Below are positions 6,132 through 55,627 of a stretch of 64,000 nt of DNA, one piece after another. Below the pieces are notes generated by a model, which had not been told where the DNA came from, did no database searches, and worked only from the letters and a program-made list of their open reading frames with translations. Made by a program: the position numbers and the translations under genes. Numbering within the stretch: the first letter of the stretch is position 1; each line of letters opens with the position of its first letter. Source of the DNA: Tetrapyrgos nigripes (Eukaryota; Basidiomycota; Agaricomycetes; Agaricales; Campanellaceae); contig JAACJM010000042.1 of the NCBI GenBank assembly GCA_013368315.1, positions 372,001 to 436,000 on the forward strand. Reading direction: 5' to 3'.

Positions 6132-7373
6132 ATGGAAGTGCTCCTCCTAGAACAACGACGGCAATTCCAGCAACTTCTTCTGCAAGTTCTGGATGTCATG
6201 GAAGAAAACGAGAAGGACAGAGAAGGTGCTACTCGGCCTGGAGGGCCAGTGGACTTGGAGAAGCTGTCAGATACTGTCTGGTTGGTACAGTTCCGGTACG
6301 CTATCAGCTCTGATCAATGGTAGTATCTCATTCAAGTATTCTGCAGATTCACGAGAAAAGAAGTGCACCAACTTGCAACGACCCTTGACCTGCCCCCCGT
6401 CATACGCTGTGAAGAGAACCAGATTAAAGAGGAGCGAGTTACAGCTCTATGCATGCTCCTTCGACGCCTCGCATACCCAGCTCGTTTGTCTGACATACAA
6501 ATGCAGTTGGGTTGGGAGCGCAGTCGGTTTTCTCGAATCACACGAACCACAGCTGTAACGATATACAACCGCTGGAAACATCTACTCCGTTTTGACCCCA
6601 CACGCTTGACTCCGGTGGTCCTGGAGCAGTTTGCCCTGACCATTCAGGAGAAAGGTTGTCCTCTCAGAGTCGTGTCAGCAATCATCGATGGGACTCTTCG
6701 TCGGGTTGCTAGGCCTGTCAGGAACCAATGCATTCTGTACAACAGCTGGAAACGAGTCCATGCTCTCAAGTTCCACTGTCTGATTACTCCCGATGGGATT
6801 GTCATCCATGTCTATGGACCGATGGAAGGCCGCCGCCACGACAAAACCTTGTATAAAGAGAGCGGTCTTGCTCGGCTTCTGGATGAGCATTTTTGGACCC
6901 CAGACGGACGAAATCTCTTCGTGTATGGAGACCCTGCATATGGTGTCGGAGACCACTTGATGTCTCCGTTCAAAGGGGCTAGTGTATCACAGGATCAGAG
7001 AAGGTGGAATACAGCAATGAGCCGCATTCGGGAACCTGTGGAGTGGTTGTTCAGTGAGATGTCGAAGCAGTTTGGATATCTAAACTATGCACAAAATCAG
7101 AAGGTACTGCTATCTCCCTGTGGACTATTCTATCTCGTTGGACTTCTACTCTGTAATGCACATACTATCCTCCACTATCCACAAATCCCACAGTACTTTC
7201 AATGTCCACCGCCGTCCCTACAAGAATACTTTCACGGCGGACCAGTTGACGATGCTGACTTGGAGGAATGGGCTATGCGTGCTGCAGCTGAATCACCATG
7301 GGGTGAAATGGATGTACAAGAATCTGAAGACGAAGACGACCCTCGTTGGTGGACTGGAGAGGTCGATGAGTAG
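6132..7373 (+). CDS. PIF/Harbinger transposase (DDE_Tnp_4 type)
   Basis: Two exons, 6132-6295 and 6347-7373, give 396 aa. The ATG sits in CACCATGG, and the intron GTACGC..CTGCAG restores the frame VQFRFTRKEVHQLA. The N-terminal third is the usual helical region (QLGWERSRFSRITRTT). The catalytic core follows: IIDGTLRRVARP (first Asp), LKFHCLITPDG, GRRHDKTLY, FVYGDPAYG (second Asp) and SRIREPVEWLF (Glu). The C-terminus is acidic (ESEDEDDP). It would cut and paste the element by binding the long inverted repeats. No lesion is visible, so activity is possible. The convergent SANT-like gene ends 46 bp downstream, as in two-gene Harbinger elements. Confidence 0.9.
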
Positions 7374-13093: not shown

Positions 13094-14640
13094 TCAGACT
13101 AACAGATTATTTTTCTTTTCCTTTTTTACCAGATCTGACAAGAGAATCACAAACTTCAGATTCGATGCCATTGTTGGATTGCCACAACTGGTGTAGTATC
13201 CAGCTGTATAGCTGACCAAGCACACACTCCCCACTGGAATTTCCTCGTTCACCAATGGAAGAGAAGATATATTCTTCCAGTCATCAGGAGCACAGTGAAA
13301 ACCATTCACACAGTTGGTTTTCCTTGGACAATTGTCACAATGATTGGAACTGTCGTGTAAATTGTAAGTCTGTTTTTTTATTATGAAATCAAGCAGGAAC
13401 TTATTCAGGTCTGCAGCTTTGAATAATGATCAGTTACAAGAGTTTCAGACATCAAGTCAATTTGTTGCAATTCTCCCCATTCATCTTCAGTGACTGAAGT
13501 GACAAATATAATTTTGTAGTTAGATAGAGTTTCACATGCCACATGGAGAAGGAAGAGCAGGAAGAGAAGAAAGAGAAGGATTCACTCACTGTCTGACATC
13601 ACAGTGCATAGAGTTGAAAAACAAAAAATGCCGTTGTGATATCCATACACCACAAAGCCAGCTTTTTCAAACATATAGCAGAGGAAACTAGATGTCAATT
13701 GGTGCTCTTGGCTAAACAGCAGCAGCTCAACTTTCTTGCAACCTGATCCTGTCAATTTGTTTTCTGGAGTTAGGACATGGGAAGCAATTATAAGACTGGT
13801 AGACACAAATACTGCAATACCTGAAGTTGCTCTAGGTTTCGGTGGAGTGAGTATTATTTTGCCACCTTTTCCAGAGTTTAAGAGCTCTGTTCTGAAGATA
13901 TTTAGATTCACTCTGGCAGGGTTCCATACTTGCTTATATGACTCAAATTTCAAAGTGAGAGCCGTCAACCTGAGGCAATATCAGCATCTGGCAATTTCTG
14001 TCATGATCTAACTCACTTTCAGGCTTCTCCTGAAAAGGTACCTGTTGCCTCAGCCTGCAAAGAGGAGAACTTGGAGACTCTTAGGCCATTGTAGGCCTGG
14101 CACTGGGTGCAAACACTCGTAATTCCTTGGATATACAGAGGAATTACACAAGACTTACACTAGTACACTCAATATGTAAGTCCACTTGACTTACTGAAGT
14201 ATTACCAAGGACCACTGTGAAACTTCATACCTTACAATAGTCATATATAATTGTTCCATTTTTCTTGGTCTCTGGTAATACTTCAGTAAGTCAAGTGGAC
14301 TTTCATATTGAGTGTACCAGTGTAAGTCTTATGTAATTCCTCTGTATATCCAAGGAATTACAAGTGTTTGCACCCAGTGTGGTTATAAGAGTGTAAGCTG
14401 GCCCATGCTAATCCAGCAAATTAGATCAAACTGAAAGATGTAACTGCACACTTACAGTAAGTTTGGACAGTTGCTGTACATGTTGTCCTTCCAGTCTAGA
14501 TAATCGTCTTAGTATTCCTTTTTTCAAGCTCCATCCTGTGACTGGAGTCTTTGCACAGGCCAATGGTGATTCAGCAGTAGAACTTGACTTTGCTTTTTCT
14601 TTGCCTTTGTACGAATCTTTTGCTCTAGAGTAGAAAATTA
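13094..14640 (-). pseudogene. Uncharacterised gene remnants carrying a CACTG foldback
   Basis: Minus-strand coding pieces: AKDSYKGKEKAKSSSTAESP..LSRLEGQHVQQLSKLT (about 14458-14640) ends at a GTAAGTG donor. ALTLKFESYKQVWNPARVNL..LLFSQEHQLTSSFLCYMFEK spans 13582-13968, and NEEIPVGSVCLVSYTAGYYT lies near 13200. The 279-bp foldback at 14101 sits between the first two pieces, probably in an intron. I cannot name the protein. Composition is CpG-poor. Confidence 0.35.
14101..14379. mobile_element. CACTG foldback MITE, 279 bp, copy A
   Basis: A near-perfect hairpin begins CACTGGGTGCAAACACT and ends with the complement. The 3-bp duplication TGG lies at 14098-14100 and 14380-14382. CACTG ends with a 3-bp duplication fit the CACTA/EnSpm group. 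It has the same length as the copy at 29772 and shares its terminal 13 bases with the giant element at 44929. Confidence 0.92.
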
Positions 14641-26449: not shown

Positions 26450-28671
26450 TAGGAAGTTCTTTCTTTCTTTCAATGTTCCCGACCTCCACCTCATATCTTA
26501 TGGTGCGTAGTCATCGCGGTCTTGATGCTGACATCTAGTTGGTGTACAGATTGCGAAGCCTCATCAAGTTTTTATGAGGTCCTTCCTGGCGCCTTTCATC
26601 CCTCCAATTGCCCATCCTCACTCCCTCCACTGTACACACCCCTGCTGCATTGTCTCTCTTTGTCACAGGTGTCTCAGTATCTATGACTTCTGCTGGTGAC
26701 ATCAGCATTCTGGATACCCAAACCTGAGCCTTTCCAGCGTCTGCCCATCCTTCCGGGTTCCATCATCCATGAGGTCTAAGCCGTCAAAAACAGGCTCAGA
26801 CAACTGGACTGCAGGGGGGGGGTATGCTCACCTGCAGGGCTTTCGGATTGCCTCACTTTCTTTCCCTGTTGCTTGTCTTTCCAGTGCAGCACCCATGCCT
26901 GCTCAGTCTCCACCACCATCTTCACCACTGCTGTTGATATTCAGCCTTATGTCTACAGCATCCCTTTCTCTCCCCCATCTATTTATTTTGTATCTTTTCT
27001 CTCCATGTTGTTTTGTTGGTTGTATGTACTTGTAGTAGTACTTAATGTAATTACTTGAGCCCCTCTTACTAACCTTTCTTTCAGCATATGCTTACTTCCT
27101 CCAATGGTCCTATCCCTTTTTGCATTGATACAACTGTTGAAATACGTTGGGGCACGAAAAGCAGGGGGAAAGAATGTTTGACCTTGTATTGGTACCAGAG
27201 GTAAACGAGTAAAGATACAGCCTATGCAACTACTGTATTTATACTCCGTAAATGGCTAAAATACCGCAAATAAACTCCTATTGACCCCCCCTATATGTTG
27301 AGGGGCCGTATTCAGCTTGCTATGGCAAAAATCCAAATCCAACAACAACATCACACCATCTCTGCACCTTCACGTCAAGACATCGTCATACTGTCTCTGT
27401 GTCATACCAGCACTTCAGTGCGGTAGACATCCTACCCTGCCTGCGAGGACAACTGGCCCTACTACACTGTTGCTTGCCCCGCAGTTATCCAGTCATTGGA
27501 TCCACGTAGTAGCTCCTTGTAGCATTACAGTGCAGTGTATAAATTCATTCATTCGGCAAGGAATATGACGAGGTCAGCCATTCAAGTCAGCTAGAAGGAA
27601 TGGATAGGTCATCTTCTTTGGTGTTTTGTTTTTTTTTGTTGGGAGCAAGAGTACTAGTTTTTTGGTCCCTGAATAGTCAGTACTACTAGTCCATGGTTAC
27701 TTGTTTAATCCCAGTGAAAAGTCAATGGAAGAGCGAACACCAGCGAATGTCCAAAAGACACTCAGTCTGACTCGCCTGTGTTTGCTCTTGTTACAAAATT
27801 GTGCACCGCCCATTATCTGCATTGAGTCAAACTGAGTCTGAGCAAGTGTTTTTTGGAAGATTTTGAGTATACTGTACTATTTCGAAGAAGTGTTCAGTCA
27901 CACATAACGGCGATGAGTGAACTGTTCAATTTTCAGTTTGTCATGCATAACGCACATAGAATGAACTGAGTGACCAACTACCCATTTCTGGGCTATTTTG
28001 AGGCCCAAAAAATGGAAAAACTGTGTCATACGGCTATTGGCTACTACAATCTGTAAGCTACTTGCCTTAAGTGGGCCAGCCAAGCTCTCGCTGGCATGTA
28101 CAAATCCAATGGGCATTATTTTTTTCATTCCTCATTAGAAAAAGTAAAAGTACAGAACTTAATGCACTCATCATCTGGCCTGTGGCCAACTCCTCATGTG
28201 CTAGTAGTTACTAGTAAGAGGATATAGTAAAAGTATGTGTCATCATATTCTTCTGAGGGAACTTTGCTGAAATATGTGAAAGAAAAAACAAGAGAGAAAA
28301 AAGAGATGAAGGAGACAGAGAGTCCAAAATTAGATTAATGATGTCATAGTTCAATGGGATGATAGAGACCTCATTGAACTGTTAGATAAGCTAGAGGGCC
28401 ACAAAACAATTGATTCGATGCAGCAAAGTAAATACAAGTACATGACTTGGAGGCTACAGAGATTACAGAGATTAGTTCTAAATTCTAAACTGAGGAGTCT
28501 GAGTCCTGACTCAACACCAGAGCCAAAGAGGGTAGTGTCAAACAAAGCCAAACCACCACTTAAATGGCGAAAAAGGTCCAATAAAGTACGAACCTCATTA
28601 CATTCAGATTTGTAATTTACAGTAAGTTTTGTCATTGGTGTTGTCTTGCAGCATTGTACCCCAGTCCTTTG
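26450..28671. other. CpG-poor block, no gene named
   Basis: Only weak coding pieces are present. The best is plus-strand 28350-28617 (LIELLDKLEGHKTIDSMQQS..PPLKWRKRSNKVRTSLHSDL), which ends in a proper stop but has no recognisable domain. A word at 28062-28100 (CCAGCGAGAGCTTGGCTGG, minus strand) recurs at 58090 and may be an element end. Confidence 0.3.
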
Positions 28672-29771: not shown

Positions 29772-30050
29772 CACTGGGTGCAAACAATTGTAATTCCTTG
29801 GATATACAGAGGAATTACACAAGACTTACACTAGTACACTCAATATGTAAGTCCACTTGACTTACTGAAGTATTACCAAAGACCACTGTGAGACTTCATG
29901 CCTTACAATAGTCATATATAATTGTTCTATTTTTCTTGGTCTCTGGTAATACTTCAGTAAGTCAAGTGGACTTACATATTGAGTGTACCAGTGTAAGTCT
30001 TATGTAATTCCTCTGTATATCCAAGGAATTACAAGTGTTTGCACCCAGTG
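29772..30050. mobile_element. CACTG foldback MITE, 279 bp, copy B
   Basis: Same structure and length as the copy at 14101, with only scattered differences. A CCA duplication lies at 29769-29771 and 30051-30053. The two sites prove mobility of the family. Confidence 0.92.
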
Positions 30051-36243: not shown

Positions 36244-39200
36244 ATGCCGAGTACGCTTATACACGAGATACTCTCCTTCTTATCACTCTCTGCCGCCCTT
36301 GGACCGATATCCGTTGTGGCTTCAACGTCGAGTACTGCATATTCGCAGACTCCCTGGTCCACAGTTTCCTCGTCTTTACTGCACACCTTCAACACCACCG
36401 TCGATGGACGACTCTCCCAGGGCTTTCCATTCGCAGCACCTTGCGCGATGATGTCAAACGATTCTTCAAACTCCACAGGTACCACACCAACTTGTGATCA
36501 AATCCAAGCAGGATATTTAGATGAAGGTACGAGACCCGGGATGATTCTTCGTGTTATCACTCGTTCCTCGGGCTTATCACCAGTGAATGACTAACTGACT
36601 GATCGACTGCTGCTTGCTTTTAGAGTTCCGCACAAACAACTTTGGAGCCTACACTAATCCCCAATGGGAGACTTGTCAGACGACCGGAGACCAATGTCTT
36701 TTGGACTGGAGAGATCCGAAAAGTTTGGCGCCTGTATTACCTCCGAATCAATGCAAGCCAGGAAGTGTTCCGTCTTATTTTGTGAGTATTGGACCGTGTT
36801 CAGAAGATACTGTTCGAGTACATTCTTACTACTTGCTGACGCTGATGCTCGGCCAGATCGACGTTGAATCAGAAAAGGACGTCCAAGCTGCGTACGACTT
36901 TTCTCGACGAACAGAGATACCGCTCGTCATCAAGAATACTGGGGTACGTGTTGTTTCTACTCTGTTTCCTGCTGAAACGGATACTAACCCGTAATCTCCG
37001 ACAGCACGACTACGTGGGGCGTAGTAGCGCTCCTAACTCATTAGCTCTCTGGGTAAATCATCGCTTTGTTCATTGAATACGATCCCGAAGAGTTCTGATA
37101 CATCATATCATGTTACAGACACATAACCTTAGAAACGTAAGTTGAGGAACTACTGGACAGACGAGGAAACTCGTCCATTCTCGCTATCCCTATACTCATC
37201 CTCATTCCCGATGTCGTATACATTCCTCTGCTTGTTTGAAAACGGGAATCTAAGCTAACTGACTTAACTTTCTACCCTGCGTCCTTAGATTTCGTATTCT
37301 CCCGAGTTCATACCAGAGGGATGTACAAAGGATGAGGCTAAACCAGGAGTTACGCTTGGGGTAAGTGTACACATCTGCCCTCTTGATTTAAAGCCACCTT
37401 GCCATCACTAGTGCGGCCCGTCGTTGCGAGACGTATCTTGTGCCGTGCCGTGTCTTCATCTTGACGCCTTGTATCTCCATTCAACTCTGGACTTGGACTG
37501 ATTGCTTTCCCTTTTCCCGAGCAGGCCGGTGTTCAGTGGTTTGAAGCCTACGCTTTTGCTGAGGCAAATAATATTACGCTCGTTGGAGGTACATATGAAC
37601 GTATTCGTCCTTTCTTTCTTTTCTTGACGATTTTCTTTCCGTTCCAGGCAGTGATCGTAGTGTGGGTGCGAGCGGAGGATGGTTGCAGGTTCGTATTGAC
37701 TTATAGAGCCTCGACATGAGCGACCGGTCCTTACAAGTTTACATTAGGGTGGAGGCCACAGCATGTTATCCAACACGATGGGATTAGGAGTTGATAGGGT
37801 TGTAAGTTTAAAACTTTGAATCATTATCGTGGATCATTTTTACTCACAACTCGCCACCAACCCTGACAGCTTCAGTTCAAGGTTGTAACCCCCGATGGCC
37901 AGTATCGAATTGCCAATGAGTGCCAAAACGAAGATCTGTTCTTTGCCCTCCGAGGCGGTAAGTGCTTCACTTCCGAGGAATGACGAAGGAAAGGGCGATT
38001 GGCACCTTCCTACTTCATTTCTATCTTTTGCTTCGCTGGTGCCTAGCTAACTTCGTCTCTTTTGGTCCATTTCCTTCTGATCGTAGGCGGAGGAGGTACC
38101 TTTGGTGTAGTCCTCGAATCCACCACACTCGCATCTCCTCAAACATCCTTACATGTCGTGGTCCTTACCCTTCCCCCAAACACCGAAAACTCGAAGACCG
38201 GCAAGGCAGGTAAACCCCATCCATCTCAGACTAAACAAATGTGGTCCATCATGATTCAAAACGGACTGAGATGGGCACAAGAAGGATGGGGTGGCGTTGC
38301 GTCATCTAGCGCTGTGATCTATATCATCCCCGGGCATTTGATGAGCAAGGAGGATGCGGCGAGATCCATGGAGCCGTTGATTGAATTAGGAAAAGGGGTG
38401 AGGAAGGATTGGGAGGCGGCCAATCCGAATGCGAATAGTACGACAGGCCCTCAGGTGGTCCTAACAGACTTCCCTAGCTGGGGAACGTTTTTCGATTGGT
38501 TTGCTTCTGAGAATGTTGCTGTGAGTGCTCTCCCTTCATCTGTCAAGTACTGGCTTATAATTGACTATATCTGATTCATCGTTCCTTTCTTGTCATTCAA
38601 CTCAGTCTGTAGGAGTCAACGTCGCTCTCGCCTCTCGTTTGATCCCTAAGGACAACTTTTCAACCTCTCAAAAACAAATCCAGCTCGTAGACAATCTAGT
38701 CAACGCCAACTCGATGACAGACAATCTCCTCTTCCTAATCGACGCGCCTTCGTCTTATCCCGATCCAAACAAGACGACGAGTGTAACCGAAACGTGGAGA
38801 GATAGCATCTATCATGTTACAATGATATCGACCTGGAACTGGAATTCTACCATGGAAGAGAAGAAGGCGAAGTATAGAAACGTCCGGAATGCAATAGAGG
38901 GCTTGAGGAGGGATACGCCGGACGGTGCATATTCGGTAAGTTCCTTTCTTTTCTTCCATGTTATTTATTCTATGGGCGCTGATTCTCTTCCCTTTTAGAA
39001 CGAAGCCGATGTATATGAACCGAATCATGAAGGTACGGTGATATGTTTTCCGTGACAGCCAAGGCCGTCCAACTTCTAACGACCCACTTTAGTGTCGTTC
39101 TGGGGTGCTAACTATGAAAGACTTCTTGAGATTAAGAACAAGTAGTGAGTATCTCATACCGGCTCTACTCCGAGCTCAGCTCTATGTTTTCGTTTCGAGA

Positions 39201-39379: not shown

Positions 39380-40334
39380 CGAAACGAGTCAATGTGTAGC
39401 TATTATCCATGTACTTTTAGACGTGTATATCTAGGACAATGGCGAGAAATTCCGTAGACATACTAACACCCATTCGTCCGCTGTCATCTCTACAAGCGCC
39501 TGCCCGGTGCATCATCTCGTCAGAGTCCTCCTCGCCAGTGTTTACGAGACTGTGCGTTCTAATGTTCCTCGTTTGATGATCGTATGGCTATCTGACATCC
39601 TGAAGCTATACATGTCATAATATAGTGCAGGCTCACCCTGGGCTCAGTGAATGAAGCTCTCCCTCCAACCGACCCATATTTGCCTAATCCTGGGCAAAGT
39701 GTCCCTTCAACTACTAACGTGGGTCCGAGTCAATTTGAGGGAGCCTTGTCACGTCAAGAAATCTGGATATGAGAGAGAAAGGGTGATAAAGGTCATAGCG
39801 TCAGTCCAGTTACTTGGGTCAAGCAGCCAAGGTCTACACACCAGATTGAGCTCTTCACCTTTCTCGGTCTCGCCTGTCACTACTACTGCCACTTTTGCGG
39901 CTACCATCGGCATATCTAGGACCATTACCATCTTAAAAGACGCTTGAGGATAGAATGACGCCTTGAGAAGCAATATGAGCTGGTCGGCTAACATTTGGGA
40001 TATAGAATCAATTGCCATGGTACTGGAAAATTGAAAAATGATCAATTTTGCTATCTTTGATTTAGGTACCGACGGTGTCAATCTTACTGATGAGTAACTA
40101 GAAGGTATGTGTAAAGCGTATTGTATTTTTCGCCAGCTTTACGAGGTCGAATGAAATGAGGTTGAGTTCGACTTCTGCTTGTGGCTATGCTTAAACGGTC
40201 CCGTCTATCCGTCCGATAAACGGGTTTGGACCGATTTTATCCGTGTGGCTGTGTATTTTTCTTTGTCTTTGTATCTACCTTTCCTTTCTCTTCTCACTCG
40301 TACTCAACTCTTACTAACTGGTTCTCCTTTCCAG

Positions 40335-42130: not shown

Positions 42131-42138
42131 TCATTATT

Positions 42139-42560
42139 TAAGCGGTGGTTTGGCTTTGTTTGGCATCACTGCATCCACCTGGGCTCCTGTATCCCATTAA
42201 GCGGTGGTTTGGCTTTGTTTGGCATCGCTGCGTCAACCTGGGCTCCTGTATCTGTTAAGCAGTGGTTTGGCTTTGTTTGGCAGCACCACATCTCAATCTG
42301 GGCTCCTGTGTCCCATTAAGCAGTGGTTTGGCTTTTTTTGCAGCATCACGTCAACCTGTCTCAACCTGGGCTCCTGTGTCCTGTTAAGCGGTGGTTTGGC
42401 TTTGTTTTGCAGCACCACATCAACCTGGGCTCCTGTTCCTGTTAAATGGTGGTTTGACTCTGTTTGGCAGCACTGTGTCTATGTGGGCTCAGCCTCCACT
42501 TCCTTTTAAGCAGCGGCAGCATCTATCTGGGTTCTACCTTCATTTAAGTAGTGGCTTGTT
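42139..42560. repeat. Minisatellite, about seven units of 57-68 bp
   Basis: Units start AAGC(G/A)GTGGTTTGGCTTTG and end CTGGGCTCCTGT. Starts lie near 42139, 42198, 42256, 42317, 42385, 42443 and 42507. The units drift in length and sequence toward the right. Confidence 0.85.
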
Positions 42561-44861: not shown

Positions 44862-44928
44862 TCCCCATTTACAATGGGGTTCCAGATGGCAAAGCCTCTA
44901 AGCAAGGGTTTTTTTCTGGTGCGGATGA
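44862..44928 (+). pseudogene. 5' part of an exon split by the giant foldback element
   Basis: After a TTCCACAG acceptor the frame reads PIYNGVPDGKASKQGFFSGA and reaches GAT GA at the element edge. With the element and one TGA removed it runs on without a break into the piece at 53871-54090. I do not recognise the protein. A possible upstream exon is MSRFTRHKSKSKEESPVHKP at about 44717-44822. Confidence 0.55.
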
Positions 44929-45749
44929 CACTGGGTGCAAATACTTGTAAATCCTCTGCTTTACTGAGGTTTTACAAGAGTATTACACCAAGCCAATCAA
45001 TATGTAAGACTCCTTGTCATACATTAGTATTACAAGAGACAGAAAAAATTAGAACAACCTTGTATGACCATTGTAAGTCACAAAGAAATACCATGGACTT
45101 TCAGTGTGACTTGCTGTCACTGTATACCCTTGGTGGATATACTGTGGAATTACACAGGAATTTCAGAGTGACTTTTTGTCACAATATGTCATGTAGTAAG
45201 ACACATAGGAAATACTGGAGTATTTCAGTGTGACAGATAATCACAGTATGACAAACAGTAAGGCAAGAGAGATTTACAAAGGACTTACAAGGAAGCAAAA
45301 TCTGCAGGAAATTTACAAAGTGACAATCAAGTCACAGTAATACACTTGTAAGACTAGCTGTATTATGAAGGAATTACAAGAAACATTTGCTACAAACACA
45401 GGTAAATCCTCAGCCTTACTGGAGTATTACAAGAGTATTATGGAGAACCAATCAATATGTAAGTTGGCTTGACTTACAAGTGTATTACAAAATAGACAAA
45501 AAATGAGGACTATTCTGAAAGACCATTGTAAGCTGCAAGGACATACCATGGACTTTCAGTGTGAGGCTTTGTCACAGTATAGCATTGAAGAGCATACTTT
45601 TTTGTCACAGTATGTCTTGTAAAACAGAACTGAAATACCAGGGTATTTCAGTGTGAGATAATGTCACAGTAAGACAATTTGTAAACCAAGTAAAATTTAC
45701 AGAGGACTTACCAGAAGGTAGAACTTGAAAATCTTGGGTAAGACTGCTC
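44929..45749 (+). repeat. Left 821-bp terminal arm of the giant element
   Basis: It matches 53047-53867 in reverse complement along its length with few differences (for example TTGGGTAAGACTG against TTGGATAAGACTG). Many short GTAATAC, TTACAAG and GTGACAG words repeat inside, typical of CACTA subterminal regions. Confidence 0.9.
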
Positions 45750-45791
45750 GATCGTTACTGCAAGCACCAGGGTTCGAAGGTTGGGGCAGTC

Positions 45792-46844
45792 TTGGAGATA
45801 CAGGAGAAATTGCGGATGGTTCAAGGGATGTCTGATCAGGATTGGAAAGGTGGTCTGGCTGCATTTTTGGAGATGTTGGATAACGCAGATAAGGAAGAGG
45901 ATGAAGCAGTTGTCAGGGGAAAGAAAAACTCAGATGAGTCTTCGAATGATAATAACATTCCCCTCCCACTCAATGATCCATCCTTTCCAAACAAGAAGGC
46001 GGCCAAGGACGATGACACAGAATACCCCTGGTCCAGTGGCAATCTGTTGTCTGCGGTTGCTATGGACGATCTTTCCCCTATCTGTTGTCAGACTTTATGT
46101 CTCCTCTCCAAAAACCTCGAGGATCCGAAGAAGGCTCTTCATTCTCTCCTATCATCCCCCCTTTGCCTGGATCTTCCTGAATCCGAGCTCAAAGCTATTT
46201 TGCTCAGCAAACCAGTCAACCTTGATGTGGTTTTCACCTCTTTGTACTCTAACATGTACACGGAGGATCGAATGGAAGATCTTGCAGACGGAATTCAGAT
46301 CAGATTTGGGAATCAGGTACCATCAAAGCAGATCACCGACTCCAATGAATGGGGTGTTGTATGGCACAAAGTCAGGACTGCTTATGCTCGCATTTTCCTC
46401 ACCTTGAGGCAGACGTCAAGGCCTATGGGGAATACATTCACCAGCAGTTGGCATCTGTCAAGAAACCCTTCTACTCCAGGGTCATTCATTTTGACAAAGC
46501 AGTCCACTTCCAAGTCGCCAATTCCCGCTCCATCCGTTTCATTGATTTCAGCCTTTTCTCTGATCTCAGAGAATCCCATATCAGCGACACAGGATCACGT
46601 CAAAGAGGCTCCCCAAAAATCGAATCGTACGACACCTACCAAGTCCAGAGTCCCCTGCAACAATTGGAACATGGGATTTTGCACAGCTTCTGCGAGCACT
46701 TGCACTCGCCTACATATTTGCAATGTTTGCGATCTTCCTGGCCATAAAGGTCCTAAATGCCCCCTCCTTCCTAACAAATCTACACCTCCCTCTTCTACAC
46801 TTCCCTCTAAACCTCCCCCATCCAATGTTCCTGCCCATCAATAA
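45792..46844 (+). pseudogene. Zinc-finger protein ORF of the recombinase cassette, two frame changes
   Basis: It starts MEIQEKLRMVQGMSDQDWKG and is acidic to about residue 80. A helical part follows, ending NEWGVVWHKVRTAYARIF. There a base is missing and the continuing protein (PHLEADVKAYGEYIHQQLAS .. KPFYSRVIHFDKAVHFQVAN) lies in the next frame. The first frame resumes near 46540 with SENPISATQDHVKEAPQKSN, and ends in a Cys-rich finger: CNNWNMGFC..C..LHIC and CDLPGHKGPKC. CCCH plus CCHC fingers of this type occur next to tyrosine recombinase genes in mushroom genomes. A nucleic-acid-binding role is inference. As read, it is disabled. Confidence 0.6.
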
Positions 46845-47024
46845 TTCTCCTTTCTTTCTCATATTTTTTATTCTTGATGCCCGCATTTTGATATGGACTT
46901 TCTCTTCTAATTTCTTCATGTTTCTTTATTCTATTTTGGCCCTCTTTCATGATTTTTATGTTTGCCTGATGGCTGCAGCGACAATTGCTAGACCCCCTTG
47001 ATGGACGCTGGGGGTTATATTTAA

Positions 47025-48017
47025 ATGATCTCCATTTCACCAAACTCCAGGCAGCCTGTTCGTGAGCCCTGGAGTTTGGAGAAGTTAATTCACGAACGTT
47101 CTATTTGCCTGGGTTTTTCAATTGATACTTCTTCTTCTTCTTCTTATTCTTCTGCTTTAAATTCCTACCTTACATTCTGCAAGATCCACAATTTCCCCAT
47201 TTCCCCTACTCCTGAGAACCTCAGCATGTATGCTGTCTTTATGTCCTCCCACATTAGTCTCCGATCCGTCAACAACTACCTCTCCAGTATTGCCAGTGAA
47301 CTTGAGGTACATTACCCCGAGGTCCGTCAAGCCTGGAATTCGTCCCTGGTCACACGCACGATGACCGGTTGTCTACGACGATGGGGTTCTCCTGTCAAAA
47401 GAAAGCTTCCCCTATCTCATGACCAACTCCACATCATCATCAATTCCCTCTCCTCTTCCCAATCCCACGATGACTTCCTCTTTAAAGCGATGGTATTGAC
47501 AGGCTTGCATGGTTTGCTTCGTTTGGGGGAGATCACAGATCCCACAAACAAGCGTTTAATCAATCGCCGCAAAACCATGATGTGGCATTCCGTTGATATT
47601 ACCAATCCCAACCAGTACTCCTTTTTCTTGCCAGGACATAAAGCAGACCATCTCTTCGAGGGTAACCTTGTCATTGTCCAATCCACCAACCGTCCATCCA
47701 ACCCCACTCCACATTTCCTTTCTTATCTCGATTCACAAGACGAACTCTTTCCACTGTGTCCAGAACTTTGGATCCTATCTAACGGCAAGATCCCAACGCG
47801 AGATTGGTTCATCAAGTGATTAAAGATGCTTCTTCCTGATGCGAATATCTCTGGTCATTCGATGCGTGCTGGAGGAGCCACTTCAATGGCACAAGCTGGG
47901 GTTGCGCTGCACCTAATCCAGGCGGCAGGACGTTGGAGCTCTCATACATTCGAGATTTATATTTGTAAGAATCCAGTTGTCCTTCATTCTTTTCTTTTTG
48001 GACAACTGGCTCATTAA
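47025..48017 (+). pseudogene. Tyrosine recombinase, one in-frame stop
   Basis: The N-terminal half (residues 1-120) resembles a SAM-like core-binding domain (YSSALNSYLTFCKIHNFPIS .. RSVNNYLSSIASEL). The catalytic half has the box I Arg (TGLHGLLRLGEITDP), a Lys in FFLPGHKADH, box II GHSMRAGGATSMAQAG (His-x2-Arg), GRWSSHTFEIY with the Tyr nucleophile, and KNPV. A TGA at 47817-47819 lies in frame between DWFIK and LKMLLPDANISG, where relatives usually carry Arg, so CGA to TGA decay is likely. The ORF otherwise runs to 48017 (330 codons). This enzyme class cuts and rejoins DNA through Tyr, as in Cryptons. It is in the same orientation as the zinc-finger ORF. Confidence 0.75.
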
Positions 48018-48205
48018 AGTTCATGTTCACCCCTCTGTTGCTGTTTCAGGGCATTGGGCTTTTCTTTATTTTTTTCCTTGTCATCATTTTTGTGGTTGTT
48101 TACATTTAACCTCTTCTGATTATCGTCCCAACTCCACTTTGATCCTTTCCAAAATTAAAAAAAAAAAATCTTTCCCTTCCCTTCCCTCCCTCTTCTTAGC
48201 TCCAT

Positions 48206-48324
48206 AGCCCTCTTCTTCATCCCAATGTCATTTCTTGTATGGGCGGCCTCTTGGGGTCGTTGCAATCCACCTATTATTCCATGTCTGATGTCCTCTGACT
48301 CACGTTAGAAGACGCAGCAATTAG
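48206..48324. repeat. 119-bp direct repeat, copy 1
   Basis: Starts AGCCCTCTTCTTCATCCC and ends GCAGCAATTAG; copy 2 is at 48836-48954 in the same orientation with about six differences. It lies 189 nt after the recombinase ORF. Confidence 0.85.
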
Positions 48325-48615
48325 TCGTGGTTAATGTTTACTTTAATATAGTCTAATTGTGAGTACTTCACAGAGTCTCGCATCCCCCACTCCTCTCAGT
48401 CTCCATCCTTTCCTATCCTCCATCTTGGTTCGTACATCTCATTGAGATCGGGCCCTCCTTACTAGCAGTTTATGATCTGATCACAATTCAGTGAAACTGC
48501 TAGTCTCCTAACATCCACACATCTTCCTCTCACATCCGTCCCAAACATCCTTGTGCCACACGTTGCATCTATTTCATATTCTCCTTCACTTACTTATATA
48601 CTTTCCCTTCTTACT

Positions 48616-48684
48616 ATATTTTCCCTTAGTTTATCTCTCGAGTGAGCAGCGAGTGAACGAGAGAGATAAACTAAGGGAAAATAT
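48616..48684. repeat. Hairpin with a 24-bp perfect stem
   Basis: ATATTTTCCCTTAGTTTATC and the next four bases pair with 48661-48684 around a 21-nt loop (48640-48660) that holds AGTGAGCAGCGAGTGAACGA. It sits midway between the two 119-bp repeats. Confidence 0.85.
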
Positions 48685-48835
48685 CCCTTCCCACCCTCTT
48701 TTCAAATTCTTACCTGAGTAGAGGCAAACTTTTCTTGACGAGAGGCGTTCTCCCATGTGGTTTACTCCCGCAGGTTTTTACTGTTACCCTACTACGGACA
48801 TTGTAGTATACTTAACTTACTAAAATGTTGTAGTA

Positions 48836-48954
48836 AGCCCTCTTCTTCATCCCAATGTCATTTCTTGTACGGGCGGCCTCTCGGGGTCGTTGCAATCCAC
48901 CTATTATTTCATGTCTGATGTCCTCTGACTCGCGTTAGAAGATGCAGCAATTAG
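48836..48954. repeat. 119-bp direct repeat, copy 2
   Basis: Second copy; its last base is the right edge of the recombinase cassette inside the giant element. Confidence 0.85.
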
Positions 48955-49363
48955 ACTGAATTTACAGAGGGACATCTGTGTCAGAGTAATACCCTAGAAA
49001 GACTTGTGATTTTACAAGGGAATTACAAGATGCAGGTTTTAAAAGTCTATCTCGTAAGTCTCTGGGAAAAACCTGCATGCTAAATGGAGAATATACAGTG
49101 TGACAGACTGGTCACAGTAAGACACTTGTAAGTCACAAGACATTACAATGACTTTACTGAAAAGTGACTATTTTGTAAGTCATCATGTATATCCAATGGA
49201 CTTACAAGAGACTTGTTGGATGGATTTGCAGTGCATGTCAATTAAGTAATACAGAAGGGCTTACTGAAAATTTACAGGATGTAATACAATGAATTCATTC
49301 AACCAGGTTAATTAAATTTTACTAAATATAAATAGACAGCTCAGGCTGGACAGGAAAAGGGCA

Positions 49364-52300
49364 GACTACTGTGTCTGCCTTGTCATCTTTGTCTGCTCAG
49401 TCTGTTACATCTGCCCCATCTGCCCCATCTGCCTGTCTGCCTTGTCTATGCCTTGTCTGCCTTGTCTGCTCTGTCTGCTCTGTCTGCCTTGTCTGCTTCG
49501 TCTGCCTTGTCTGCCCTGTCTGCTCCATCTGCCTTGTCTGCCCTGTCTGCCTTTTCTGCCTTGTCTGCCCTGTCTGCCCCATCTGCCTTGTCTGCTTCGT
49601 CTGCCTTGTCTGCCTTGTCTGCCTTGTCTGCCTTGTCTGCTTTGTCTGCCTTGTCTGCTCTGTCTGGCTTGTCTGCCCTGTCTGCCTTGTCTGCTCCATC
49701 GCTTTGTCTGCCTTGTCTGCCTTGCCTGCCTTGTCTGCTTCATCTGTGTTGTCTGCCTTGTTTGCCCCATCTGCCCTGTCTGCCTTGTCTGCCCCATCTG
49801 CTCCATCTGCCTTGTCTGCCTTGTCTGCTCTGTCCACCTTGTCTGCCTTGTCTGCTCTGTCTGCCTTGTCTGCCTTGTCTGCCTTGTCTGCTCTGTCTGC
49901 CTTGTCTGCCTTGTCTGCCTTGTCTGCTCTGTCTGCCTTGTCTGCCTTGTCTGCCTTGTCTGCCTTGTCTGCCTTGTGTGCCTCGTCTGCCTTGTCTGCT
50001 CCATCTGCCTCGTCTGCCTCGTCTGCCTCATCTGCTCTGTCTGCCTTGTCTACCTTGTCTGCTCTGTCTGCCTTGTCTGCCTTGTCTGCCTTGTCTGCTC
50101 CGTCAGGCACAGATGAGGCAGACGGCGCAGATGAGGCAGATGGCACAGACGAGGCAGACGGCACAGACAAGGCAGATGGCGCAGATGAGGCAGATGGCGC
50201 AGACGAGGCAGATGGCACAGATGAGGCAGACGGCGCAGACGAGGCAGATGGCGTAGACGAGGCAGACGGCGCAGACGAGGCAGACGGCACAGACGAGGCA
50301 GACAGTGCAGATGGAGCAGACGGTGCAGATGAGGCAGACGGCACAGACGAGGCAGACAGCACAGACGAGGCAGACAGAGCAGACAGAGCAGACGAGGCAG
50401 ACAGAGCAGACAAGGCAGACAGAGCAGACAGAGCAGATGAGGCAGATGGAGCAGACAGAGCAGACGAAGCAGACGGTGCAGACGAGGCAGACAGAGCAGA
50501 CAGAGCAGACGAGGCAGACAGAGCAGACGAGGCAGACAGAGCAGACAGAGCAGACGAGGCAGATGGAGCAGACAGAGCAGACGAAGCAGACAGTGCAGAC
50601 GAGGCAGACAGAGCAGACAGAGCAGACAAGGCAGACAGTGCAGCCGAGGCAGACAGTGCAGACAAGGCAGACAGCGCAGACGGAGCAGACGGTGCAGACA
50701 GAGCAGACGGCACAGACAGAGCAGACGGCGCAGACAGAGCAGTTGGCGCAGACGAGGCAGACGGCACAGATGAGGCAGACGGCACAGATGAGGCAGACGG
50801 CACAGACAAGGCAGACGGCGCAGACAAGGCAGACAGCACAGACAAGGCAGACAGAGCAGACGAGACAGACGGAGCAGACAGAGCAGACGAGGCAGACGGT
50901 GCAGACAAGGCAGACAGCGCAGACGAGGCAGACAGCGCAGACAAGGCAGACAGCGCAGACAGAGCAGACGGCGCAGACAGAGCAGACGAGGCAGATGGCA
51001 CAGAAGAGGCAGACAGTGCAGACGAGGCAGATGGCACAGACAAGGCTGACGGCACAGACAAGGCCGACGGCACAGACAAGGCCGACGGCACAGACAAGGC
51101 CGACGGCACAGACAAGGCCGACGGCACAGACAAGGCCGACGGCACAGACAAGGCCGACGGCACAGACAAGGCCGACGGCACAGACAAGGCCGACGGCACA
51201 GACAAGGCCGACGGCACAGACAAGGCCGACGGCACAGACAAGGCCGACGGCACAGACAAGGCCGACGGCACAGACAAGGCCGACGGCACAGACAAGGCCG
51301 ACGGCACAGACAAGGCCGACGGCACAGACAAGGCCGACGGCACAGACAAGGCCGACGGCACAGACAAGGCCGACGGCACAGACAAGGCCGACGGCACAGA
51401 CAAGGCCGACGGCACAGACAAGGCCGACGGCACAGACAAGGCCGACGGCACAGACAAGGCCGACGGCACAGACAAGGCCGACGGCACAGACAAGGCCGAC
51501 GGCACAGACAAGGCCGACGGCACAGACAAGGCCGACGGCACAGACAAGGCCGACGGCACAGACAAGGCCGACGGCACAGACAAGGCCGACAGAGCAGACG
51601 AGGCAGACGGAGCAGACGAGGAAGATGGAGCAGACGAGGCAGACAGAGCAGACGAGGCAGACGAAGCAGATGGCACAGACGAGGCAGATGGAGCAGACAG
51701 CGCAGACGAGGCAGACGGTGCAGACGAGGCAGATGGAGCAGACAGTGCAGATAAGGCAGACGGTGCAGACGAGGCAGACAGAGCAGATGAGGCAGACAAG
51801 GCAGACAGAGCAGATGGCGCAGACAAGGCAGACAGAGCAGACGGCGCAGATAAGGCAGACGGAGCAGACGGTGTAGATGAGGCAGACGGAGCAGACGGCG
51901 CAGACAAGGCAGACAGAGCAGATGGCGCAGACAAGGCAGACGGAGCAGACGGTGTAGACGAGGCAGACGGAGCAGACGGCGCAGACAAGGCAGACAGAGC
52001 AGATGGCGCAGACAAGGCAGACGGAGCAGACGGTGCAGACAAGGCAGACGGAGCAGACAGTGCAGATGAGGCAGACAGAGCAGACGGCGCAGACGAGGCA
52101 GATGGAGCAGATGGCGCAGACGAGGCAGACGGAGCAGACAGCGCAGACGAGGCAGACGGAGCAGACAGCGCAGACAAGGCAGATGGAGCAGACGGCGCAG
52201 ATGAGGCAGACGGCGCAGACGAGGCAGACCGCGTAGGCGAGGCAGACAGTGCAGACGAGGCAGACAGAGCAGACGGCGCAGACGAGGCAGACTGAGCAGA

Positions 52301-52621
52301 CGGCGCAGACGAGGCAGACGGAGCAGACAGTGCAGACGAGGCAGACGGAGCAGATGGCGCAGATGAGGCAGACAGCACAGATGAGGCAGACGGCGCAGAC
52401 GAGGCCAAGACAAGGCAGACAAGGCAGACAGGGCAGATGGGGCAGACAGGGCAGACAGGGCAGACAAGGCAGATGGGGCAGACAGGGCAGACAAGGCAGA
52501 CAGAGCAGACAAGGCAGACGGAGCAGAGATAAACCAGACAGGGCGAACAAAGCAGACAAGGCAGATAGGGCAGATGGCACAGATGTAACAGACTGAGCAG
52601 ACAAAGATGACAAGGCAGACA
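49364..52621. repeat. Palindromic satellite of 9/18-bp units, 3.26 kb
   Basis: The left arm (49364-50103) is TGTCTGCCT repeated with variants. At about 50104 it switches to the complementary form (GCAGACGAGGCAGACGGC) and runs to 52621. Because the unit is a multiple of three and lacks stops, several frames on both strands stay open for 500-1000 codons. I do not regard these as genes: they have no start context, no domain and no splice sites. The right arm is over three times longer than the left. Confidence 0.95.
51046..51590. repeat. Homogeneous 18-bp tandem array, about 30 copies
   Basis: The unit GGCACAGACAAGGCCGAC repeats with no visible change, unlike the mixed units on either side. This points to recent local expansion within the right arm. 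Confidence 0.95.
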
Positions 52622-53046
52622 CAGTAGTCTGCCCTTTTCCTGTCCAGCCTGAGCTATCTATTTATATTTAGTAAAATTTAATTAACCTGGTTGAATGAAT
52701 TCATTGTATTACATCCTGTAAATTTTCAGTAAGCCCTTCTGTATTGCTTAATTGACATGCACTGCAAATCCATCCAACAAGTCTCTTGTAAGTCCATTGG
52801 ATATACATGATGACTTACAAAATAGTCACTTTTCAGTAAAGTCATTGTAATGTCTTGTGAATTACAAGTGTCTTACTGTGACCAGTCTGTCACACTGTAT
52901 ATTCTCCATTTAGCATGCAGGCTTTTCCCAGAGACTTACGAGATAGACTTTTAAAACCTGCATCTTGTAATTCCCTTGTAAAATCACAAGTCTTTCTAGG
53001 GTATTACTGTGACACAGATATCCCTCTGTAAATTCAGTGTAAATAT

Positions 53047-53867
53047 GAGCAGTCTTATCCAAGATTTTCAAGTTCTACCTTCTGGTAAGTCCTCTGTAAA
53101 TTTTACTTGGTTTACAAATTGTCTTACTGTGACATTATCTCACACTGAAATACCCTGGTATTTCAGTTCTGTTTTACAAGACATACTGTGACAAAAAAGT
53201 ATGCTCTTCAATGCTATACTGTGACAAAGCCTCACACTGAAAGTCCATGGTATGTCCTTGCAGCTTACAATGGTCTTTCAGAATAGTCCTCATTTTTTGT
53301 CTATTTTGTAATACACTTGTAAGTCAAGCCAACTTACATATTGATTGGTTCTCCATAATACTCTTGTAATACTCCAGTAAGGCTGAGGATTTACCTGTGT
53401 TTGTAGCAAATGTTTCTTGTAATTCCTTCATAATACAGCTAGTCTTACAAGTGTATTACTGTGACTTGATTGTCACTTTGTAAATTTCCTGCAGATTTTG
53501 CTTCCTTGTAAGTCCTTTGTAAATCTCTCTTGCCTTACTGTTTGTCATACTGTGATTATCTGTCACACTGAAATACTCCAGTATTTCCTATGTGTCTTAC
53601 TACATGACATATTGTGACAAAAAGTCACTCTGAAATTCCTGTGTAATTCCACAGTATATCCACCAAGGGTATACAGTGACAGCAAGTCACACTGAAAGTC
53701 CATGGTATTTCTTTGTGACTTACAATGGTCATACAAGGTTGTTCTAATTTTTTCTGTCTCTTGTAATACTAATGTATGACAAGGAGTCTTACATATTGAT
53801 TGGCTTGGTGTAATACTCTTGTAAAACCTCAGTAAAGCAGAGGATTTACAAGTGTTTGCACCCAGTG
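53047..53867 (-). repeat. Right 821-bp terminal arm of the giant element
   Basis: Inverted copy of 44929-45749. In the intact right side it is joined to the inner arm by the 8 nt GTAAATAT (53039-53046); on the left this spot is taken by the 3.2-kb cassette. Confidence 0.9.
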
Positions 53868-53870
53868 TGA

Positions 53871-54090
53871 CTGGAAAAAGTTGATGTCCTTGTCACAGTT
53901 TGAGACTGTAGGTGGTGAAATACCTAAAGGTCACATTTGCACTGTAGGATTCACCATTTCCCATTGGGATAATTTTCTGAAGCACCTTAACTTGTCCTAC
54001 ATCATCATTCTTGCTTGCCCAGATATGGAGAAGGATGTTCCTGATCTTGCTGACTCTGGTGTTGAGATTGAATCCTCTCAGGCTGTTTAA
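53871..54090 (+). pseudogene. 3' part of the exon split by the giant element
   Basis: It continues the frame from 44928: DWKKLMSLSQFETVGGEIPK, GHICTVGFTISHWDN, LACPDMEKDVPDLADSG, ending at a TAA at 54088-54090. Protein family unknown. The piece MASYLLEAQRVKRILVYPVN (54426-54623) may belong to a following exon. Confidence 0.5.
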
Positions 54091-55627
54091 GACATACATA
54101 TGAGTCCTGCAGCACCTCATGTCAATCGATTTTCAGTTTTTGTGTGCCACTCTCACTAGCTTATCTAATAGTTTAATGAGCCCTCTATCATCCTGTTAAG
54201 TTATGACATCATCAATTCAAATCATTGGATAGTAAATCTAGCTTATATAATAGTTTAACAATGCCCCTAGCATATCATTAAACTATGACATCATATTCTT
54301 TGATCTGATATCACCTCTATGTTGACTGTCTGTTGGAAACTCTTGTGGATGGTGGTACATTGTTTTGTTTGGAAAACAGGGACCCAGTACTTCCTTAGCT
54401 CTACCAAGTACCTCAGCATGGACTGGTGGCTTCTTACTTGCTGGAAGCCCAACGAGTCAAGAGGATCCTGGTCTACCCTGTGAACAGAGGGGATAAGGAT
54501 CTGGCAAAGGAATTTGATGACTATGCCACCAAGCACTTACATGTCCCAAAAGGTCCTGATTCTGTGATGGCTGCTATAGGTGTGCACTTTTATTATTGGT
54601 TGTATGTCCAAAAACCTCACTAACAGTTATTGCATTGGTTATGTCAGGGCAATTCAAGTTTTTGCCAGGAGACATTCCGTTTTCCAGGGATTTGTCCAAA
54701 GTTGGAGGCAGGGTAGAGAATTCAGACATGTTACAGTTTTATATCACCAATGTGTGTGTTATCATTTATCTCTTTCTATACTGGCCTCTGATCATGTCTT
54801 ACCCCTAAATATGGCAGTTTACATGAAGACGAGGATGTAGTAACTGCCATGGCCAATTTGCAAGACTGTTTCTTGGGTCCTCGCAATACTTGAATGGAAG
54901 CGGGGGTTGAGTTTGAGAGGGACAAGGCATGAGCCATTCAGGTTCAAGGTGGCCATGCATATTCCATTGTGATGAGCATGCAGAAGCCTCACAATGTTGC
55001 AGGGCCCTGTGTCAGTTCCAAATTTACTGGGGATGACAGTGATGATCCTAACTCCCAGCTGCGACAAGATTTGTTGAAGGTGTGTCTAGTGTATATGTTT
55101 ATCACACTACCCTTCTCTGTTTCACAAAGACTACCACCACCAGTGGAATCAACATATTTAGGGCTATCACACCTGACCTGTATGATATCTTTGACAACTG
55201 CACAGACCTTCACAATACTCCTTGTATGGGCTGTGACAGGAACTGTATTTGGTCAGGTTGTCAATGAAATCTTGCTACACCTGTCTCAGCTGAATTTACC
55301 CAATTGATTTTGATTTGAGCCTTACCTTTTGGTTACACAGTCGATGGTCTTGAGGAGCTTGGTCCACTTTTTGGTGCAAAACATTGGGATAGAGGTGACT
55401 CTGTTCCAAAGTTTATGAAGATTTCCGCATTTCCAGATTATTGTGTCAGGGAATGCCTGTTATGATCAGAACAAACCAGGCAACAGAACTTTGTATTATG
55501 AAGGGCCAGGAGGGTGAGGTCTATGGTTGGACATCAAAACTGGGATCGAAGAGCCAACAAATGTTAGACACACTATTCATAAAGCTGAAGAAGCCACCAA
55601 TGGATGTGTGCCTGGATGGATTGCCAA

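What the first reader, a model, noticed from the sequence alone, without database searches (positions are those of the whole stretch)
44929..53867. 8.9-kb foldback transposon with CACTG ends inside an ORF
Seen: 13-bp inverted ends, TGA duplication, equal 821-bp outer arms, and a host frame that closes when the element is removed. Known: CACTG ends with a 3-bp duplication fit CACTA/EnSpm. No CACTA transposase is present, yet the element carries a recombinase and a large satellite. I know of no described element with this combination.
Basis: partly seen in the sequence, partly recalled or inferred. Interest (0 to 1): 0.85.

Follow-up and report, generated by a model that had tools for sequence, protein, structure and literature searches.

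The report
CACTA foldback transposon with nested recombinase
This mushroom DNA carries one copy of a large family of palindromic 'cut-and-paste' jumping elements; the odd recombinase gene inside it is a second, unrelated jumping element that landed in one arm.

Summary
The element is real: 44929-53867 has inverted ends CACTGGGTGCAAA, a TGA duplication and near-identical 821-bp outer arms (2 mismatches). The exact terminus occurs 269+263 times in the genome, against 0+1 for a reversed control. Matching 3-bp flanks were found in 27 of 28 tabulated pairs. A paralogous locus (C70) holds the site without the element and with one TGA.

The puzzling combination dissolves. The recombinase block (45750-48954) is a separate tyrosine-recombinase element nested in the left arm. 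It has its own copies and ends elsewhere. Twelve arms of 10 other foldback copies run uninterrupted there, and at C86 the nesting is reversed.

Best reading: a non-autonomous CACTA/EnSpm foldback element of a mushroom, probably Tetrapyrgos nigripes, moved in trans by a Tnp2-type transposase; 279-bp MITEs share its ends. Unusual features: long arms that mostly stay alike within a copy, an inverted 9-bp satellite core, and one locus (C79) where the satellite runs into a Tnp2 gene. The mobiliser is not proven. New variant of a known kind.

The parts
44926..44928 (.). target site duplication TGA, left copy
   Evidence: sequence; matching TGA at 53868-53870; one TGA in the C70 paralog
44929..45749 (+). 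outer left arm, beginning CACTGGGTGCAAA
   Evidence: inverted repeat with 53047-53867; motif enrichment was measured on the right arm, 52592-53867
45750..48324 (+). nested tyrosine-recombinase element, 5'-truncated inside its ORF1, intact 3' end ...GCAGCAATTAG
   Evidence: other copies at C89, C83, C5, C22 and elsewhere; termini
45792..46844 (+). ORF1 of the nested element, Cys/His-rich stretch near the C end (my reading)
   Evidence: no Pfam match; homolog in L037 also none
47025..48017 (+). tyrosine recombinase reading frame with one in-frame TGA at 47817-47819
   Evidence: the part before the TGA has no Pfam match at E 0.1; the uninterrupted relative in L032 matches PF00589 at E 1.6e-4, below the curated cut-off; database homolog P0052 is above it
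48325..48954 (+). 630-bp short version of the same element, in tandem (TCGTGG...CAATTAG)
   Evidence: solo copies at C63, C209, C216, C115
48955..49434 (+). inner left arm, resumed after the nested insertion (8 bp of arm missing)
49428..50098 (+). left half of the satellite, 9-bp unit TCTGCCTTG
50106..52527 (+). right half of the satellite, period 18 (2 x 9), unit GGCGCAGACGAGGCAGAC, inverted relative to the left half
   Evidence: 74-79% complementary to the left half in the pairs listed
52559..53042 (-). inner right arm
   Evidence: inverted repeat with 48951-49434
53047..53867 (-). outer right arm, ending CACCCAGTG
53868..53870 (.). target site duplication TGA, right copy
44862..44925 (+). 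left part of the interrupted host exon
   Evidence: open frame in register with 53871-54090; same frame in the C70 paralog
53871..54090 (+). right part of the interrupted host exon, to its stop
   Evidence: C70 paralog 89% identical over 520 bp of query
14101..14379 (.). 279-bp MITE with the same termini, duplication TGG
29772..30050 (.). 279-bp MITE with the same termini, duplication CCA

Best explanation
The element is a non-autonomous CACTA/EnSpm-type foldback transposon: two inverted arms of about 1.3 kb around an inverted 9-bp satellite core. SHOWN: boundaries, 3-bp target duplication, empty site in paralogs, a large family with the same ends, MITE relatives, and independence of the recombinase. 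INFERRED: a Tnp2-type transposase made elsewhere in the genome binds the CACTGG termini and the CTTGTAA / GTCACAGTA repeats in the arms, cuts the element out and pastes it with a 3-bp stagger. INFERRED from shared private changes: the two arms of one copy correct each other (conversion or template switching across the palindrome), and the satellite grows and shrinks as a tandem array. The recombinase is a second mobile element, a tyrosine-recombinase (YR) element in which I found no reverse transcriptase, that inserted into the left arm later. The C79 locus suggests, without proving it, that the arm-plus-satellite module is or was joined to the 5' end of a Tnp2 transposon.
For: Termini: 269+263 exact matches, control 0+1. 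TSD: 27 of 28 tabulated pairs, plus C86 by eye. Empty sites: both host flanks lie next to each other in C70 with one TGA and no element; the C86 copy 304665-313347 interrupts a recombinase-element ORF with TCA duplicated, and the uninterrupted window copy of that ORF reads across the point (compared by eye). Nesting: 12 arms of 10 other copies run through the 45750 site, the two query blocks lying 4 bp apart; the 16-bp site sequence is intact at 79+78 places; the recombinase element has its own ends, fuller copies and 630-bp solos. Repeated motifs in the arm: CTTGTAA 13 times against a best count of 6 in 100 shuffles; GTCACAGTA 6 against 4. Arms: left-right mismatches 1-2 in 5 of 7 copies; a 19-bp deletion and one substitution shared by both window arms are absent from 28 other arms; the matches are 825 bp in both arms of C27 and 820 bp in both of C201, against 843 in most rows. 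C79: a family end at 40331, then array, then a Tnp2 gene with no terminal repeat between array and gene.
Against: No transposase in this copy. Of 45 long pairs checked, one (C96) holds a Tnp2 or Plavaka match from the listed rows (the Plavaka list is cut off), and that one lies in a nested different CACTA element with its own ends. C79: its arm was not read (only 37000-39050 and the last bases were fetched), the inner-arm 16-mer is not listed there, and its left end was not found: 7 probes of 45 bp between 30.5 and 35.9 kb show no arm. That the array is in frame with the gene weighs little, since such an array is open in all three frames. A 221-bp probe upstream of the 83%-identical C86 transposase shows no array; the 69% sisters C268/C277 have ordinary coding where C79 has the array. 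Arm agreement fails in 2 of 7 copies (C281 7 mismatches, C204 10). One of 28 pairs (C31) has different flanks. The C70 paralog is diverged and 18 bp shorter just left of the site: the left flank aligns only up to about 44890.
Confidence: 0.87

Rival explanations
1. One composite transposon: the recombinase is a working part of the foldback element.
For: The block lies wholly inside the element; a composite of a tyrosine-recombinase element with a DDE element is known (MarCry-1_FO in Fusarium oxysporum; passages of PMC3212892).
Against: The block has its own dispersed copies and termini; 12 arms of 10 other copies lack it at this site; at C86 the nesting is reversed; the window recombinase frame has a stop and ORF1 is truncated.
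Confidence: 0.03
2. A foldback of another superfamily (for example Mutator-like or Harbinger-like) that happens to have CACTG ends.
For: Most foldback elements seem to be Mutator-like (passage of PMC4079207); Harbinger-like elements also make 3-bp duplications (abstract of PMC2213677 in the listing).
Against: Tetris-type duplications are 8-10 bp, here 3 bp; the target triplets vary; ends fit the 5'-CAC..GTG-3' and 3-bp rule used for EnSpm of rust fungi (PMC12730594 passages); C79 puts a family end beside a Tnp2 gene.
Confidence: 0.07
3. C79 is only an accident: a Tnp2 element nested in a foldback satellite lost its own 5' end by deletion, so it is no clue to the mobiliser.
For: Sisters C268/C277 carry upstream coding that C79 lacks; no array seen 5' of the C86 relative; no left arm found; C79's right arm unread and its inner-arm word not listed; C96 shows that Tnp2 elements do nest in these satellites.
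Against: No terminal repeat lies between gene and array: the two CAGTG words in L111 (1480, 1840) fall in coding shared with P0121 and with C268.
Confidence: 0.5
4. Assembly artefact at the palindrome.
For: Palindromes and satellites are hard to assemble; no read data here.
Against: No N in the window; many copies elsewhere with matching duplications; the window arms differ at 2 sites.
Confidence: 0.02

Closest known systems
Tetris / DAIBAM (Drosophila virilis group; PMC4079207, passages seen)
   Same: non-autonomous foldback, tandem repeats inside, a MITE sharing the outer ends, autonomous partner not found, signs of homogenisation within a copy
   Different: 8-10 bp duplications; about 220-bp repeats inside the TIR rather than a 9-bp inverted core; animal
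Galileo (P superfamily; PMC3573991, passages seen)
   Same: long TIRs up to 1,250 bp, tandem repeats inside TIRs of one subfamily, copies made almost only of TIR
   Different: 7-bp duplications, P-type transposase
CACTA/EnSpm and Plavaka of fungi (PMC12730594, passages seen)
   Same: EnSpm: 5'-CAC..GTG-3' ends and 3-bp duplications
   Different: the word foldback does not occur in that paper (0 in the listing); Plavaka ends are TGT (A) or CATCA (B), so Plavaka does not fit
Crypton and Ngaro/DIRS elements (PMC3212892, PMC3783388; passages seen), for the nested block
   Same: tyrosine recombinase; no reverse transcriptase found (as Cryptons)
   Different: no GCR1_C match, no 6-bp terminal direct repeat that I could see; a Cys/His-rich ORF1 that looks gag-like (my reading)

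Membership tests
CACTA/EnSpm | CACTA/CACTG terminal inverted repeats | tested here: met
   CACTGGGTGCAAA at both ends; 532 exact termini in the genome
CACTA/EnSpm | 3-bp target duplication | tested here: met
   27 of 28 tabulated pairs; empty sites at C70 and C86
CACTA/EnSpm | subterminal repeated motifs (feature recalled) | tested here: met
   CTTGTAA 13 vs a maximum of 6 in 100 shuffles
CACTA/EnSpm | Tnp2-type transposase encoded by the element or a family member | tested here: inconclusive
   no PF02992 or Plavaka match listed inside the window copy; C79 has PF02992 beside the array and a family end, but arm and left end are unread
CACTA/EnSpm | mobilisation by Tnp2 | not testable with these tools
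   needs a transposition assay
Foldback elements (structural class) | long inverted arms, internal tandem repeats | tested here: met
   arms about 1.3 kb each and inverted satellite halves
Mutator-like foldback | duplication of about 8-11 bp (8-10 for Tetris; range recalled) | tested here: not met
   3 bp
Crypton (nested block) | tyrosine recombinase without reverse transcriptase | tested here: met
   L032 protein matches PF00589 weakly (E 1.6e-4, below cut-off), P0052 above it; ORF1 of L037 no Pfam match; the C83 copy spans about 3.3 kb from 5' to 3' end
CryptonF (nested block) | GCR1_C domain | tested here: not met
   not among the Pfam matches of the L032 or L037 proteins
Ngaro/DIRS (nested block) | reverse transcriptase between gag-like ORF and recombinase | tested here: not met
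   in L032 ORF1 ends about 180 bp before the recombinase frame (coordinates)

The most novel reading that the evidence does not exclude
The satellite was born as an in-frame Ser-Ala-Leu/Pro codon repeat at the front of a Tnp2 transposase gene; foldback copies are inverted duplications of that 5' end (arm + repeat), multiplied in trans, with the two arms kept alike by arm-to-arm correction that a nested insertion blocks (in the window the outer arm differs at 2 of 821 sites, the compared part beyond the nested insertion at 7 of 414).
Probability: 0.25. Interest if true: 0.65.

Novelty: new variant of a known kind. Interest (0 to 1): 0.45.

Why it matters
Foldback elements seem mostly Mutator-like, with exceptions such as Galileo (passages). 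A well-populated CACTA foldback family with a satellite core, MITE relatives and empty sites in one mushroom genome would be a clean system to ask how foldbacks arise, how palindromic arms stay alike, and whether satellites can start as transposase coding repeats. It also shows how nesting can mimic a new type of element.

Tried and rejected
Nested Tnp2 in C96 as the autonomous partner: rejected, it has its own ends CACTGGAGGCGAGC / CACTTGAGGCGAGC and a TCA duplication. Its C27 relative, L069, was fetched but not analysed. Plavaka as partner: 163 matches in the genome, of the listed ones none inside the 45 long pairs checked; published Plavaka ends differ. CAGTG words in L111 as the end of a nested element: rejected, both lie in coding shared with relatives. 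Helitron for the nested block (TC start, TTAG end): not pursued, flanks are not A/T-fixed. Rfam and tRNA scans of the window: nothing. C31:20956-39320 as one element: flanks differ. C204 and C281 speak against complete arm agreement. Papers: nine searches; none of the titles and abstracts listed describes a CACTA foldback of a fungus, but the library is open-access only. Passages of five papers were seen; none was read whole.

Full report
WHAT IS THERE. The element spans 44929-53867. It starts CACTGGGTGCAAA, ends with the complement, and is flanked by TGA on both sides. The outer arms (821 bp) differ at 2 sites. An inner arm block, 48951-49434 against 52559-53042, is 98% complementary. Between the inner arms lies a satellite that is itself inverted: 9-bp TCTGCCTTG units on the left, units of period 18 (2 x 9) in the opposite sense on the right. 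The left arm is split by 3.2 kb carrying a Cys/His-rich ORF1 and a tyrosine recombinase frame with one stop. No N is present in the window.

THE GENOME. The window is part of a 98.5-Mb, 587-contig genome. A database protein named Tetrapyrgos nigripes D9758_014209 (272 aa) is found letter for letter in a G000 locus; Tetrapyrgos belongs to the Agaricales. The species name rests on this one protein.

A FAMILY WITH EXACT ENDS. The 821-bp arm finds 38 other long matches (40 of 604 candidates were scored, so a lower bound). The 13-bp terminus occurs 269+263 times; the reversed control 0 and 1. The 100 listed places (C2-C31) form 23 short pairs (19 of 279 bp, 3 of 269, 1 of 169) and 16 long pairs of 3.2-28 kb; 22 ends stay unpaired. 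The arm-internal 16-mer occurs 79+78 times, so roughly 80 long copies. Of 28 pairs whose flanks were tabulated (19 fetched loci, 3 in the window), 27 have identical 3-bp flanks; C31 does not. The C86 pair, printed in the same call, also matches.

EMPTY SITES. The two host flanks match C70:157130-157346 and 157367-157904. The C70 sequence has the host exon with a single TGA and no element; just left of the site it is diverged and 18 bp shorter, the rest of the left flank and the right flank align well. The joined window exon and the C70 exon read in the same frame. Independently, C86:304665-313347 is a foldback inside ORF1 of a recombinase element, with TCA duplicated; the window's recombinase copy reads across that point (by eye).

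THE RECOMBINASE IS A SEPARATE ELEMENT. Its DNA has other copies, with pieces at about 68 to 98% identity. Fuller copies begin TCGTGGTTAATG and end GCAGCAATTAG, with no target duplication that I could see; 630-bp solo versions have the same 3' end and, in three of the four solos shown, the same 5' end. The window copy is cut off inside ORF1 and followed head-to-tail by a 630-bp unit; 8 bp of the arm are missing at the junction. Twelve arms of ten other foldback copies are uninterrupted there. The recombinase has 735 database relatives at E 0.001; P0052 passes the PF00589 cut-off, the L032 protein scores below it, and the window frame up to its stop has no Pfam match. No reverse transcriptase match appeared in the proteins scanned.

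WHAT MOVES IT. Ends and duplication fit EnSpm/CACTA (rule as given in passages of PMC12730594); the arm is rich in short repeats, as CACTA subterminal regions are (recalled). The window copy has no transposase. PF02992 has 117 matches in the genome. Of 45 long pairs checked against the listed Tnp2 and Plavaka rows, only C96 holds one, inside a nested CACTA element with different ends. C79 is the lead: a family end at 40331; then 1.28 kb that was not read, about the length of an arm; then a short array; then a coding exon in frame with the array, related to the N-terminal part of the Tnp2 protein P0121 (51% over 97 residues); then, in another frame, the PF02992 part (E 1.2e-11), presumably after an intron. 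A nested element's end between array and gene is excluded: both CAGTG words there lie in coding shared with P0121 or with the sister gene C268. But the inner-arm word is not listed in C79, its left end was not found, the array was not seen 5' of the C86 relative, the sisters have coding instead of the array, and such an array is open in every frame. So 'C79 is the transposase-bearing form' and 'C79 is a deletion accident' both stand.

ARMS KEPT ALIKE. Left-right mismatches in the outer block: window 2, C21 2, C106 1, C196 1, C96 2, C281 7, C204 10; between copies the medians are 7-10. In 4 of 7 the partner arm is strictly the nearest; C96 ties; C281 and C204 are not. The window arms share a 19-bp deletion and a substitution absent from 28 other arms. 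In C27 and C201 the matches are short by the same amount in both arms; in C281 they differ, 841 and 843. Inner block, first 420 alignment columns: C21 0, C106 0, C196 1, window 7, C281 10; five pairs could be compared, C204 and C96 lacked one side. In the window the stretch beyond the nested insertion is more diverged than the outer stretch (7/414 vs 2/821, Fisher p 0.008). One case; suggestive only. The 28 arms are a part of some 157.

VERDICT. A real, non-autonomous CACTA-type foldback element with a nested recombinase element. The combination that looked unprecedented is nesting; the CACTA foldback with a satellite core is a new variant of a known kind, as far as nine searches of an open-access library go.

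Noticed in passing
window 14101-14379 and 29772-30050: Two 279-bp MITEs with the same CACTGGGTGCAAA ends and 3-bp duplications TGG and CCA; about 74% like the first 105-112 bp of the foldback arm.
   Followed up: yes
G000:C96:175439-199366 (L066-L068): 23.9-kb foldback copy with a 15.9-kb different CACTA element (Tnp2, ends CACTGGAGGCGAGC / CACTTGAGGCGAGC, TCA duplication) nested in its satellite.
   Followed up: partly
L111 (C79:37000-39050): 9-bp satellite running into the N-terminal coding exon of a Tnp2 transposase gene.
   Followed up: partly
L044, L045, L046, L048 and window 48325-48954: 630-bp short versions of the recombinase element dispersed alone, ending CAATTAG like the fuller copies, without a target duplication that I could see.
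   Followed up: partly
window 6363-7373: DDE_Tnp_4 transposase-like ORF.
   Followed up: no
window 42138-42475: 59-bp tandem array, 5.6 copies.
   Followed up: no
window 54156-54216: Dispersed motif of about 61 bp with 15 further matches in the genome at 80-86% identity, one of them at window 28334-28394.
   Followed up: no
G000: 163 Plavaka transposase matches, a lower bound, many in long open frames.
   Followed up: no
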